NCBI RefSeq assembly: GCF_021049285.1
Contig: NZ_CP088017.1
Span: 2,119,380-2,183,379 of the forward strand
Origin: Ruania halotolerans
Lineage (GTDB): Bacteria > Actinomycetota > Actinomycetes > Actinomycetales > Beutenbergiaceae
Reading direction: 5' to 3'
Length of the DNA: 64,000 nt
Positions 31,125-33,795 of the stretch are shown piece after piece (the stretch's first letter is position 1; the number at the start of each line of letters is the position of its first letter). Below the pieces are notes generated by a model. That model ran no database searches and had not been told where the DNA came from. It was given only the letters and a program-made list of their open reading frames with translations. The translations under genes and the position numbers were made by a program.

Positions 31125-31577
31125 TCACGTCAGAAGTCTGAGGAGGCCGAGCGCGCCGGCGCCGATAGCGCACGCCCACAGATACGAGGTCAGCGTACCG
31201 ACGAGGAAGCGTTCGGAGACGCCCGCCTCTCCGTCCAGGGTGCGGAAACGCCCGAGGCCCTTGACCGCCACCACGACGGCGATCCCGGCCGGGTAGCCCA
31301 CCAGGATGGTGCCGGTGAGGGCGAGGCGCTCCAGGATGCCGATCCACAAGCCACCGCGCAGGACCTCCTCGGGGGCTCGAGGCTCGGTCGCCTCCTCCTC
31401 GCCGGTCCCAGCATTAGCGGCGCCGGCGGACTTGGTGTTGCCAGCGGCGGGCGCCTTGCGCGTCACACGGGCGAGCACCCAGCCGGTCAGGGGCGCTCCA
31501 AGCGCGGAGGAGAGCCCGAGTGCGGCGAGGACCACGCCGACCGTGAGAAGCACCTGCGGAACGGACATGGTGATCAT
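31125..31577 (-). CDS. Small membrane protein resembling the C-terminal half of DUF3307 proteins
   Basis: A 150-aa protein with a first TM helix at about 7-27, a charged low-complexity linker (40-72), and two TM helices at about 85-105 and 125-148. The segment GGLWIGILERLALTGTILVG, then VKGLGRFR and SERFLVGTLTSYLWA, resembles the conserved end of DUF3307 membrane proteins (WIGxLER, KxxxRF, ERFLIGTLxS), though the N-terminal DUF3307 part is absent. This similarity is from memory and needs a profile search. ATG 31577 overlaps the SatD-like stop by 4 bp; ATG 31568 is an alternative. The function is unknown. Confidence 0.65.
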   Translation of the reverse strand: MITMSVPQVLLTVGVVLAALGLSSALGAPLTGWVLARVTRKAPAAGNTKSAGAANAGTGEEEATEPRAPEEVLRGGLWIGILERLALTGTILVGYPAGIAVVVAVKGLGRFRTLDGEAGVSERFLVGTLTSYLWACAIGAGALGLLRLLT

Positions 31578-32191
31578 CCTGCCGTGGCAGCGTCGAGATC
31601 GGCGAGGAGGCGCACCGCGAGCGGGTGCACTGCGCGTTCCTCCTCCCACATCGCCGCGCGGAGACGGTCGCTGACGGCCTGGGGGCTGATTCCGAGTTGC
31701 TCGGCCACGTCCTTCGCCGTGCGATCGCCCGCTGAGAGCAGATCGATAGCCTCCCAGCCGGCGTCGGAGCGGCGGCGCACGATCACGGTGAGCAACTGCA
31801 GGAGCGCTTCGCACTCTTCCGCGGCCGCGGCATCGGATGCTTCCAGTGCGAGCGGCACCGGGACAGTTCGGCCGCGTGCCCGCTCCACGGCATCACGCGC
31901 GTGCAGGAACGCGGGCCCGGTGGACGCACGTGCCGTTTCCGCCAATGGCAGGCTCGCGGCGCCGACACCGATCCCCACGCTCCATTCCTGGCGACGCTGC
32001 AGGGCGAGGGCGATCACCAACGTGGTGCGCGCATCGGTGAGGACGCCCTGGACCTCGTCCCCGACAGTGCGTTCGAACCCGAGCGCGACGCCGTCGGCGT
32101 CGCTGGTGAACTCAGCGAGAGCCGCGAGCAGTGCGGGTACCTGATCGCTGCTGTGACGGGAGTTGTCCTGGTCAGCGGTAATGACGAACAT
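31574..32191 (-). CDS. SatD-like protein with C-terminal helix-turn-helix
   Basis: A 205-aa protein. RTVGDEVQGV (41-50), SVGIGVG (71-77) and STGPAFLHARDAVERAR (90-106) match my memory of the SatD family, named for the Streptococcus mutans secretion and acid tolerance locus. Residues about 157-180 (TAKDVAEQLGISPQAVSDRLRAA) form a clear DNA-binding HTH. The start codon ATG 32191 lies inside a 12-bp-arm inverted repeat, with no Shine-Dalgarno at usable distance, so the mRNA is probably leaderless. The HTH plus the repeats suggest autoregulation (inference). It is coupled to the DUF3307-like gene by ATGA. Confidence 0.7.
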   Translation of the reverse strand: MFVITADQDNSRHSSDQVPALLAALAEFTSDADGVALGFERTVGDEVQGVLTDARTTLVIALALQRRQEWSVGIGVGAASLPLAETARASTGPAFLHARDAVERARGRTVPVPLALEASDAAAAEECEALLQLLTVIVRRRSDAGWEAIDLLSAGDRTAKDVAEQLGISPQAVSDRLRAAMWEEERAVHPLAVRLLADLDAATAG

Positions 32192-32218
32192 AGATCAAGG
32201 GTAAAACCTTGATCTATG
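32189..32218. promoter_or_regulatory. Inverted repeat 1 over the satD-like start (12-bp arms)
   Basis: CATAGATCAAGG, a 6-base spacer, then CCTTGATCTATG: the 12-bp arms are perfectly complementary. The repeat covers the -10 element and the start codon of the SatD-like gene. It shares its core ATCAAGG-N6-CCTTGAT with the second repeat, so the two look like tandem sites for one dimeric regulator. Confidence 0.8.
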
Positions 32219-32226
32219 AATATCAA
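32191..32226 (-). promoter_or_regulatory. Candidate leaderless promoter of the satD-like operon
   Basis: Reading on the minus strand, TTGATA (plus 32221-32226) is followed by a 17-bp spacer and TACCCT (plus 32198-32203). Seven bases further is the A of the start ATG (32191). Thus -35, -10 and transcription start fit sigma-70-type spacing, with the first transcribed base being the start codon. The -10 matches the consensus only at its key T, A and final T. Confidence 0.55.
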
Positions 32227-32241
32227 GGCCCTTGCCTTGAT
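32222..32241. promoter_or_regulatory. Inverted repeat 2 over the -35 region (7-bp arms)
   Basis: ATCAAGG, six bases, CCTTGAT: same core and same spacer length as inverted repeat 1, centred 28 bp from it. It covers most of the putative -35 element and runs to the first base of the aroQ stop codon. Confidence 0.75.
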
Positions 32242-32699
32242 CATCCGCGATCAGGCCTCTCCCCCTCGGCAGTCAAAGCCTGCAGCGCCAACCGATAGGA
32301 ATCCACGCCGAATCCCGCGATGGTCCCCGTGGCGATACCCGCGATCACACTCGTATGACGAAACCGCTCCCGCGCCGCGGGATTACTCAGATGCACCTCC
32401 ACCAGCCGCAGCCCACCCGTGGTGACCTGCGCGGCCGCGTCCCGGAGGGCGTAGGAGTAGTGGGTGAACGCCGCAGGATTGAGTACCACATCGCTGCGGG
32501 AATCGACCGCCTCGTGCAGCCAGTGCACGAGTTCAGCCTCGTCATCACTCTGGCGCACCTCGGCGTGCAGGCCGAGCTCCGACGCCCAGGAGTGCACGCG
32601 GGCGGTGAGCCCCTCGTGATCGAGGTGGCCGTACACATCCGGCTCACGGCTGCCCAGGCGGCCCAGGTTCGGACCGTTCAGCACCAACACCTCAGTCAT
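32241..32699 (-). CDS. aroQ: 3-dehydroquinate dehydratase, type II
   Basis: Third step of the shikimate pathway, dehydrating 3-dehydroquinate. The 152-aa type II enzyme begins MTEVLVLNGPNLGRLGSREPDVYG, which includes the flexible lid with catalytic Arg and Tyr. It continues with VLNPAAFTHYSYALRDA (substrate Asn and His) and VEVHLSNPAARERFRHTSV. ATG 32699 is chosen for GAGGGGAG five bases upstream; GTG 32705 is an alternative. It overlaps aroB by 8 bp. Its stop codon abuts the second inverted repeat before the SatD-like gene. Confidence 0.95.
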   Translation of the reverse strand: MTEVLVLNGPNLGRLGSREPDVYGHLDHEGLTARVHSWASELGLHAEVRQSDDEAELVHWLHEAVDSRSDVVLNPAAFTHYSYALRDAAAQVTTGGLRLVEVHLSNPAARERFRHTSVIAGIATGTIAGFGVDSYRLALQALTAEGERPDRG

Positions 32700-33795
32700 C
32701 ACCACTCCCCTCGCTGATCGCAGTGTAGGTGGCCTCCAGCAGCGCCGGGTCGGGGCCGGTCAACCGGGTCGGCCGGGCCAAACCCTCCAACACCACGAAC
32801 CGCAGCGTGGCGCCCCGGGTCTTCTTGTCCCGGCCCATCGCGGTGCGCAGCGCCTCCCACGCACCGGGCCGATAGGTGGTCGGCAGCCCGACCATGCTGA
32901 GCACGTCGCGGTGTCGGCGGGTCAGCGCGGCATCGATGAGTCCGGCCCGATGCGCGAGTTCGGCCACGAAGACCATACCCACGGACACTGCCTCACCATG
33001 ACGCCAGCGGAACTCCTCGTTCAACTCCACCGCGTGAGCGAAGGTGTGCCCGTAATTGAGCACCTCACGCAATGAGGACTCTTTCAGGTCGGCGGAGACC
33101 ACCTCCGCCTTCACCCGCACGGCCCGCTCCACCAACTCGGCGAGCACCGGACCATCGGGCACCAGTGCTGCGAGGGCATCGGCCTCGACGAGCTCGAGAA
33201 TGCGTGGATCAGCGATGAAGCCGCATTTGATCACCTCGGCCATCCCGGCACGCAGATCTGCGTCACCGAGCGTGCGCAACCAGGCCAGGTCACAGACCAC
33301 AGCGGTGGGCGAGTGGAAGGAGCCGACGAGGTTCTTGCCTTCGCCGGTGTTGATCCCGGTCTTGCCACCCACGGCCGCATCGACCATCGCGAGCAACGTC
33401 GTGGGCACCTGGATCACCCGGACGCCCCGCAGCCAGGTGGCGGCCACGAAGCCGGCCAGATCGGTGGTGGCGCCGCCACCGAGCCCGATCACCACATCGG
33501 TGCGGGTGAACGCCGCCTGCCCGAGAGCAGCCCAGCACCGGGCGGCCGTCTGCGCCGTCTTGGCCTGCTCGCCGTCCGGCAGCTCCTCGGCGAGCACCTG
33601 GTAGCCGGCATCGGTGAGGCGGGTCGCCACCTGCATGGCGGACTCGGCGAGGGACGGCGGATGCATGAGAAAGACTCGGGTGGCATCGGCCACCAGGGCC
33701 GGCAACTCGGCCAGCAGGTCGGTCCCGATCACCACGTCATAATCGTGCTCGGCGCGCACTGGAACCCGTGCGTGCACCTGCCCGCCCGTCGTCAT
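32692..33795 (-). CDS. aroB: 3-dehydroquinate synthase
   Basis: Second shikimate-pathway step: NAD- and metal-dependent cyclisation of DAHP. In the 367-aa protein, IGLGGGATTDLAGFVAA and QVPTTLLAMVDAAVGGKTGIN form the NAD and phosphate sites. MAEVIKCGFI and NYGHTFAHAVE supply the metal ligands, with HGEAVSVGM after them. ATG 33795 overlaps the aroK stop by 4 bp. Confidence 0.97.
   Translation of the reverse strand: MTTGGQVHARVPVRAEHDYDVVIGTDLLAELPALVADATRVFLMHPPSLAESAMQVATRLTDAGYQVLAEELPDGEQAKTAQTAARCWAALGQAAFTRTDVVIGLGGGATTDLAGFVAATWLRGVRVIQVPTTLLAMVDAAVGGKTGINTGEGKNLVGSFHSPTAVVCDLAWLRTLGDADLRAGMAEVIKCGFIADPRILELVEADALAALVPDGPVLAELVERAVRVKAEVVSADLKESSLREVLNYGHTFAHAVELNEEFRWRHGEAVSVGMVFVAELAHRAGLIDAALTRRHRDVLSMVGLPTTYRPGAWEALRTAMGRDKKTRGATLRFVVLEGLARPTRLTGPDPALLEATYTAISEGSGDD

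What the first reader, a model, noticed from the sequence alone, without database searches (positions are those of the whole stretch)
32189..32241. Leaderless promoter buried in two tandem inverted repeats
Two inverted repeats with identical core ATCAAGG-N6-CCTTGAT, centred 28 bp apart, fill the 49-bp spacer between aroQ and the SatD-like gene. A TTGATA / 17-bp / TACCCT promoter is interlaced with them, and the start codon falls seven bases after the -10. So the mRNA would start at the ATG, and a bound regulator would cover -35, -10 and start site together. On RNA from aroQ readthrough, the first repeat would fold a hairpin hiding the ATG, giving a second layer of control.
Basis: partly seen in the sequence, partly recalled or inferred. 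Interest (0 to 1): 0.75.

Follow-up and report, generated by a model that had tools for sequence, protein, structure and literature searches.

The report
Self-regulating gene switch with matched operators
Two mirror-image DNA repeats in front of a bacterial regulator gene are very probably the docking sites of that same regulator, placed across its own start signal, and across many related bacteria the letters of the docking site change in step with the amino acids predicted to read them.

Summary
In detail: two exact ATCAAGG-N6-CCTTGAT palindromes, 28 bp apart, fill the aroQ-satD spacer and are the only exact copies in the 4.27-Mb genome. Homologous loci carry the same array: alternating [A/T/G]CAAG half-sites, -35 on a half-site, -10 (TAnnnT) inside the proximal palindrome, start codon six bases later; 130 of 201 upstream regions gave confident, register-assigned arrays. 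In 95 of these the start codon sits at exactly this phase; all 95 have A-11/T-7, none an SD-like motif. Operator letters track the recognition helix: residue 170 Q goes with A and P/E/A/T with T at base 1 (pre-stated; 28 of 29 held-out rows), R with G (22 of 23, mostly noticed afterwards), K/R/N175 with C at base 5 (9 of 10, noticed afterwards). So the SatD-like protein most likely represses its own leaderless operon (regulator plus membrane protein). The RNA-hairpin layer is not supported: pairing outside the half-sites towards the ATG is at chance in relatives. The N-terminal domain resembles class III cyclases, weakly; its signal is unknown. Independent evolutionary switches are few, and nothing was measured at the bench.

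The parts
32194..32213 (-). promoter-proximal palindrome ATCAAGG-N6-CCTTGAT (operator P2), holds the -10 in its spacer
   Evidence: conserved as WCAAG(-21)-N8-CTTGW(-8)
32222..32241 (-). promoter-distal palindrome (operator P1); its start-proximal half-site is the -35
   Evidence: conserved as WCAAG(-49)-N8-CTTGW(-36)
32250..32255 (-). degenerate fifth half-site CCTGAT inside the aroQ 3' end (weak consensus CTTGA at -64..-60)
32221..32226 (-). -35-like TTGATA
   Evidence: TTG at -35..-33 conserved
32198..32203 (-). -10 element TACCCT (TAnnnT), six bases before the start codon
   Evidence: A-11 and T-7 in 95 of 95 lattice-phased promoters, TAnnnT in 79 of 95
31574..32191 (-). SatD-like regulator, 205 aa: cyclase-like N-terminal domain plus C-terminal HTH; predicted leaderless ATG at 32191-32189
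31655..31684 (-). codons 170-179, HTH recognition helix; residues 170 and 175 (and, on few rows, 171 and 172) covary with operator bases
31125..31577 (-). membrane protein gene, overlaps the satD stop (ATGA), probable co-transcribed partner
   Evidence: same-strand downstream match in 76 of 80 loci; start at 31577 read by eye
32241..32705 (-). aroQ (type II dehydroquinase), upstream neighbour
   Evidence: PF01220, 1.7e-49

Best explanation
The repeats are an operator array bound by the SatD-like protein encoded immediately downstream. Dimers, probably joined through the cyclase-like N-terminal domain, place their HTH recognition helices on alternating half-sites [A/T/G]CAAG...CTTG[T/A/C] that cover the -35, the -10 and the start codon of a leaderless promoter. 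Binding therefore most likely represses transcription of the regulator and its downstream membrane-protein gene (negative autoregulation), relieved or tuned by an unknown ligand, possibly a nucleotide, of the cyclase-like domain. Shown by computation: array, phasing, leaderless geometry, conservation, covariation, near-exclusive location. Inferred: binding itself, sign of regulation, dimer geometry, ligand.
For: Array conserved (130 confident, register-assigned arrays of 201 upstream regions, with 3 more confident but unassigned and 68 below threshold). Start codon at exactly lattice phase 21 in 95 of 130; the next phases have 28 and 16 loci. A-11/T-7 in 95/95, TAnnnT in 79/95, SD-like GGAG/GAGG/AGGA 0/95 (AAGG in 1 and AGGT in 2 of 94). 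Residue 170 to base 1: the Q-with-A and P/E/A/T-with-T rule was written down before the later loci were fetched and holds in 28 of 29 held-out rows (23 of 24 at or below 70% identity to any discovery row); R with G holds in 20 of 20 held-out rows but was added to the rule after seeing them (two such rows in the discovery set); discovery rows 69 of 70. K/R/N175 with C at base 5: 9 of 10, post hoc. By normalised MI the top column is 170 for base 1, 171 for base 2, 172 for base 4, 175 for base 5. Independent tree pairs on well supported branches, means over 200 pairings: Q170/A1 1.9 same way, 0 opposite, 1.1 no difference; R170/G1 1.0 same; KRN175/C5 3.8 same, 0 opposite, 0.2 no difference. Of 39 matches to the operator-promoter pattern in 10 genomes, 32 lie at the satD-homologue promoter, which holds the best match of each genome; the reversed pattern gives 11 (positions). 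Direction of the code agrees with common contacts (Arg-G, Ala methyl-T; PMC5045206 passage).
Against: No binding or expression data. Independent switches are few; no single tree test reaches p 0.05 (medians 0.5, 1 and 0.125). MI for bases 2 and 4 rests on only a few rows with a changed residue, by raw excess MI base 2 is led by column 21 (171 is eighth), and variable base 6 shows no recognition-helix column at the top. Exceptions: L066 (Q170 but TGAAG, where 171 is E), L104 (P170 but ACAAG), L013 (K170 with A), L120 (S170 with G), L131 (R175 with T); A175 goes with G in 7, C in 3, undecided in 1 of 11. Only 3 held-out rows are Q. 68 of 201 upstream regions have no confident array. Near-matches to the palindrome outnumber the reversed control in the own genome (18 against 3), though the shorter TCAAG-N8-CTTGA with up to 1 mismatch does not (57 against 146, with a third exact copy at G000:C1:3474264), so further targets are not excluded. 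Half-site spacing of 13/15 bp is not the usual one-turn spacing of HTH dimers (recalled).
Confidence: 0.8

Rival explanations
1. The SatD-like protein binds the array but activates its own promoter (positive autoregulation), e.g. by recruiting RNA polymerase.
For: The -35 is only a half-site, and upstream half-sites (-64 weakly, -49) are conserved; M. tuberculosis promoters show no conserved -35 motif (PMC3898074 passage).
Against: The proximal palindrome straddles the -10 and reaches nearly to the start codon, where a bound dimer should block polymerase.
Confidence: 0.12
2. Another DNA-binding protein (a wider regulator) owns the repeats; satD is just a target.
For: Autoregulation is not directly shown; 18 places within 2 mismatches of the palindrome against 3 in the reversed control.
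Against: Exact palindromes occur only here; the two 1-mismatch places lie in open frames; the operator-promoter pattern up to 3 mismatches hits only this promoter in G000 (reversed pattern 2 hits); operator letters covary with the recognition helix of the adjacent gene.
Confidence: 0.05
3. The repeats act as RNA: a hairpin on aroQ read-through transcripts hides the satD ATG, or ends aroQ transcription.
For: The window sequence folds well as RNA (z -5.0 and -6.3).
Against: Pairing outside the half-sites towards the ATG is at chance (0.18-0.36); diverging pairs are as conserved as hairpin pairs (0.79-0.95); no terminator-like site; arrays are present in 28 of 34 loci with at least 1,800 nt upstream and no aroQ match there.
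Confidence: 0.03

Closest known systems
Lambdoid phage repressors/Cro (434, P22)
   Same: HTH recognition helix reading short half-sites in palindromes across their own promoters; the Q-type helices here (T-Q-Q-A-V-S-Q) with ACAAG half-sites resemble 434 repressor and its ACAA half-site, and the change from Q to a small residue with A to T resembles a classic 434 residue-28 specificity mutant (all recalled, not tested; searches returned no paper with their terms). Pfam P22_Cro matches 16 of 47 members at E<=0.01.
   Different: Chromosomal, cyclase-like N-terminal domain, C-terminal HTH, 28-bp lattice, leaderless; no family membership shown.
PucR/CdaR-type regulators (BAD_0249, 3onq; Rv2242, 9f80)
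   Same: 3onq is the top Foldseek row (E 4.9e-3, probability 0.90, TM 0.33) and 9f80 is rank 27 (E 0.18, probability 0.44); as recalled, they also join a GGDEF/cyclase-like domain to a C-terminal HTH.
   Different: rmsd about 15 A over the full length, so the domains are arranged differently; the PucR HTH family (HTH_30) matches 1 of 47 members.
SatD family (PF16264)
   Same: Profile covers residues 35-180 of the window protein; 28 of 47 aligned homologues match at E<=0.01.
   Different: Window protein scores 23.9 bits, below the 29-bit cut-off; among the listed results no title or abstract concerns regulation by SatD proteins (papers that mention satD were not read).
Class III nucleotidyl cyclases (Ma1120, Rv1264) and GTP cyclohydrolase III
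   Same: Predicted fold: Foldseek probability up to 0.99 for Ma1120, Rv1264 and MJ0145 chains, 0.84-0.91 for some other chains of the cyclases; profile comparison of residues 1-140 with cyclases aligns residues 39-80 (TVGDE and GIGxG) at 65% probability, P 6e-5 (C-terminal control 0.2%, reversed control 1.2%).
   Different: Foldseek E 0.008-0.11 for these rows, none <=0.001 in the search; fused to an HTH; activity unknown.
Leaderless genes of Actinobacteria
   Same: TAnnnT about 12 bp before the start codon, no SD (PMC3160421 and PMC3898074 passages).
   Different: Here the leaderless promoter is built into the operator and conserved with it.
TF/operator correlation studies (MerR, PMC5045206)
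   Same: Mutual information between protein columns and operator bases (abstract and passages).
   Different: Different family; my phylogenetic correction is cruder.

Membership tests
Autoregulatory HTH operator | palindromic or repeated sites overlap the gene's own promoter | tested here: met
Autoregulatory HTH operator | operator base covaries with recognition-helix residue, including held-out loci | tested here: met
   few independent switches
Autoregulatory HTH operator | the protein binds the site and changes expression | not testable with these tools
   needs EMSA and reporter
Leaderless gene | TAnnnT about 12 nt before the start codon and no Shine-Dalgarno | tested here: met
   window TACCCT; relatives: A-11/T-7 95/95, TAnnnT 79/95, SD-like 0/95
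Leaderless gene | transcript 5' end at the start codon | not testable with these tools
   needs 5'-end mapping
SatD (PF16264) | score over gathering threshold (29 bits) | tested here: not met
   window protein 23.9 bits, genome search 22.8 bits; 28 of 47 homologues match at E<=0.01 (whether each passes the cut-off is not shown)
Class III nucleotidyl cyclase | cyclase fold with TVGDE and GxGxG motifs | tested here: inconclusive
   D7 and D45 invariant in the 47-member alignment, but D7 lies outside the aligned stretch
Class III nucleotidyl cyclase | catalytic activity | not testable with these tools
   needs enzyme assay
PucR/CdaR regulators | PucR C-terminal HTH (HTH_30) | tested here: not met
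   not among the matches of the window protein at E<=1; 1 of 47 homologues at E<=0.01
434/P22 repressor family | sequence homology of the whole DNA-binding domain | tested here: inconclusive
   only short HTH matches

The most novel reading that the evidence does not exclude
A widespread, apparently uncharacterised actinobacterial family of one-component regulators (class III cyclase-like sensor plus HTH) controls essentially one promoter, its own, which is leaderless and embedded in a 28-bp lattice of half-sites; because each genome carries its own operator, the family is a natural, readable protein-DNA recognition code with at least two positions (170 to base 1, 175 to base 5) and repeats in nature a specificity switch known from phage 434 repressor (the last recalled).
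Probability: 0.5. Interest if true: 0.75.

Novelty: new variant of a known kind. Interest (0 to 1): 0.62.

Why it matters
It gives an unnamed regulator-membrane protein operon a concrete, testable mechanism, helps to fix the start codons of these genes, and supplies about 130 matched regulator/operator pairs from which a DNA-recognition code can be read and tested with single substitutions. It also raises the question why a cyclase-like sensor would guard its own leaderless promoter and a membrane protein.

Tried and rejected
RNA hairpin/attenuation (fold, rejected). Transcription terminator for aroQ (none). A genome-wide regulon: not supported but not excluded. The palindrome with up to 2 mismatches has 18 places against 3 reversed, whereas TCAAG-N8-CTTGA with up to 1 mismatch has 57 against 146 reversed (one further exact copy elsewhere, not looked at); the two 1-mismatch palindromes lie in open frames; the other weaker places were not examined. 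Seven of 39 operator-promoter pattern matches in ten genomes lie elsewhere; five stretches around them were fetched and read: by eye they lie in or near coding sequence, some phage-like, without the satD promoter phasing, and were set aside. PDB sequence search with the window protein found nothing at E<=1; with the alignment mostly short HTH matches and sigma-factor stretches. Literature: one paper on another subject; one search listed 15 of 1,137, three of which are bacterial papers that mention satD (not read), the rest satellite DNA; none; one phage paper; nothing on this family in the listed part. A tree test of the code is limited by few switches. One search used a wrong spacer (one N too many) and found nothing; one search used the right one.

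Full report
Observation. The spacer between aroQ (ORF end at 32241) and the SatD-like gene (ATG 32191-32189) is 49 bp and holds two exact ATCAAGG-N6-CCTTGAT palindromes at 32194-32213 and 32222-32241. In the whole 4,270,413-base genome the exact pattern occurs only at these two places; within 2 mismatches there are 18 places against 3 for the reversed pattern. The two 1-mismatch places lie in open frames. An E. coli-type consensus scan reports no promoter because TACCCT shares only T, A and the last T with TATAAT; that is the actinobacterial TANNNT form (PMC3898074, passages; PMC3160421, passages).

Conservation. A scan of genome contigs returned 80 homologous loci (the best 80 of 280 relatives). 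Anchored on the first codon of the match, 81 promoters (80 loci plus the window) show half-sites at -64 (CTTGA, weak), -49 (WCAAG), -36 (CTTGW), -21 (WCAAG) and -8 (CTTGW), and T-12, A-11, T-7. Whole-genome searches added homologues: 86 of 149 genomes of the order at E<=1e-10 and 57 of 296 of the class at E<=1e-20 (some genomes shared); loci came with those calls and stretches were fetched. Not every match was fetched. Of 219 sequences (218 loci and the window) 217 held a homologue (L083 and L084 did not). Five copies of the window locus, five rows without an anchor (L151-L155) and six duplicates were dropped, leaving 201 upstream regions. A sequence-agnostic scan for four half-sites on the 28-bp lattice, compared with 100 crude block shuffles per region, gave 133 arrays with p<=0.01 and score >=20; 3 could not be assigned a register (L107, L140, L216), leaving 130. 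The register rule uses bases 3-4, and TT at bases 1-2 for the diverging register, so base 2 and base 4 results lean slightly on it. The 68 others include several more distant homologue clades, so the operator is not universal.

Leaderless geometry. In 95 of 130 arrays an in-frame ATG/GTG/TTG lies exactly 21 nt past a forward half-site (modulo 28); the next phases hold 28 and 16 loci; a locus has 1.7 candidate starts on average. All 95 have A-11 and T-7 (T-7 is also a half-site base, A-11 is not), 79 have TAnnnT, none has GGAG/GAGG/AGGA in -16..-5. A stricter rerun with the start near residue 1 gives 94, again 94/94 for A-11 and T-7, with AAGG in 1 and AGGT in 2. T-12/A-11 are specific to the proximal palindrome: the equivalent spacer positions of the distal palindrome are T 16/94 and A 43/94, against T 79/94 and A 94/94. 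Of the 35 arrays off this phase some are shifted by one base and some (for example L013, L040, L095, L104, L193) sit further upstream of a start with an SD-like motif.

What reads it. The protein is 205 aa with a confident model (mean pLDDT 97.1): an alpha/beta N-terminal domain and a helical C-terminal part with the HTH. Over the 130 arrays residue 170 tracks half-site base 1: Q with A 36 of 37, R with G 22 of 23 (1 undecided), E with T 26 of 26, P with T 26 of 27, A 5 of 5, T 2 of 2, K mixed (6 T, 1 A, 2 undecided), S with G in 1. The Q-with-A and P/E/A/T-with-T rule was noted from the first 81 promoters before the later loci were fetched. In held-out rows (58, with identical proteins removed) it holds in 28 of 29; at or below 70% identity to any discovery row in 23 of 24. 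Only 3 of these rows are Q. R with G was added after seeing the later rows (20 of 20 held-out, 18 of 18 at or below 70% identity; 2 rows in the discovery set); with it the held-out total is 48 of 49, and 9 rows (K, S or undecided) were not testable. Discovery rows: 69 of 70. Base 5 tracks residue 175, also noticed afterwards: K/R/N with C in 9 of 10, others without C in 113 of 116. In a scan of all sufficiently variable protein columns the best normalised mutual information falls on 170 for base 1, 171 for base 2, 172 for base 4, 175 for base 5; bases 2 and 4 rest on a handful of rows, by raw excess base 2 is led by column 21 (171 is eighth), base 3 gave no result (too little variation), and base 6 varies without a recognition-helix column at the top. 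On a quick tree built from residues 1-150 (HTH left out), independent pairs on well supported branches go, as means over 200 pairings, 1.9, 1.0 and 3.8 the same way for Q/A, R/G and KRN175/C5, none the opposite way, with 1.1, 0 and 0.2 showing no difference: supportive, but too few for a single test to reach 0.05.

Target range. In G000 the operator-promoter pattern with up to 3 mismatches has four matches, all at this promoter (reversed pattern: 2). In ten genomes 39 matches were found, 32 at the satD-homologue promoter, which holds the best match of each genome; the reversed pattern gave 11 (positions). The shorter palindrome core with up to 1 mismatch is not enriched over its reversed control (57 against 146). 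Five of the stretches with matches elsewhere were read and lack the promoter phasing. A small further regulon is not excluded.

Neighbours. In the 80 loci the membrane protein of the window has a same-strand downstream homologue in 76, EF-P in 59, nusB in 57, and aroQ upstream in 45 (flanks are at most 2 kb and sometimes shorter, so these are lower bounds). Of 34 loci with at least 1,800 nt upstream and no aroQ match there, 28 have a confident array; of the 45 with aroQ, 43 do. In the window the membrane gene overlaps the satD stop codon (ATGA, read by eye), so the regulated unit is probably satD plus the membrane gene. The membrane protein has no Pfam or NCBIfam match over a cut-off (best E 0.17 and 0.19) and no second copy in the genome at E<=0.001.

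RNA reading. The window's 12-bp arms reaching the ATG fold well, but in 94 promoters pairing outside the half-sites towards the ATG is 0.18-0.36, while the 5-bp half-site pairs are 0.74-0.97 and the diverging register 0.79-0.95. This is a DNA lattice, not a conserved hairpin.

Sensor domain. Foldseek against the PDB has no hit at E<=0.001. The top row is 3onq, a Bifidobacterium regulator (E 4.9e-3, probability 0.90, TM 0.33, rmsd 15 A); then come class III adenylyl cyclases (Ma1120, Rv1264) and GTP cyclohydrolase III at probability 0.84-0.99 and E 0.008-0.11. Profile comparison of residues 1-140 with 27 cyclase domains from the order (30 loci fetched; L253 out of frame, L249 and L250 dropped) aligns residues 39-80 (TVGDE, GIGxG) at 65% probability (P 6e-5), against 0.2% for the C-terminal part and 1.2% for the reversed control. 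D7 and D45 are invariant in the 47-member alignment. Nucleotide sensing is therefore a lead, not a result. The Pfam SatD threshold is not met (23.9 against 29 bits).

Verdict. The repeats are most likely an autoregulatory operator array of the SatD-like protein on a leaderless promoter (0.8 including repression; higher for binding alone). Autoregulation as such is ordinary; I found no study of this regulator family in the listed results of the searches made (open-access papers only), and its operator code is unusually legible.

Noticed in passing
L013, L040, L095, L104, L193: Homologues whose operator array sits further upstream and whose gene has an SD-like motif: apparent switches between leaderless and leadered starts.
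   Followed up: partly
L151-L155: A clade of homologues whose N-terminal DQxxSR motif looks lost while the HTH is kept; their upstream regions could not be anchored.
   Followed up: no
L130/L132, L125/L140 (genomes G005, G024): Some genomes carry two paralogues with different recognition helices; one of each pair has an array (L132; L140, register not assigned), the other none.
   Followed up: partly
L219:3297-3342: A second array-like place in a relative of the same genus, just before a small ORF, not at the satD lattice phase.
   Followed up: partly
window 31125-31577: Conserved small membrane protein with no Pfam or NCBIfam name, downstream of the regulator in 76 of 80 loci.
   Followed up: partly
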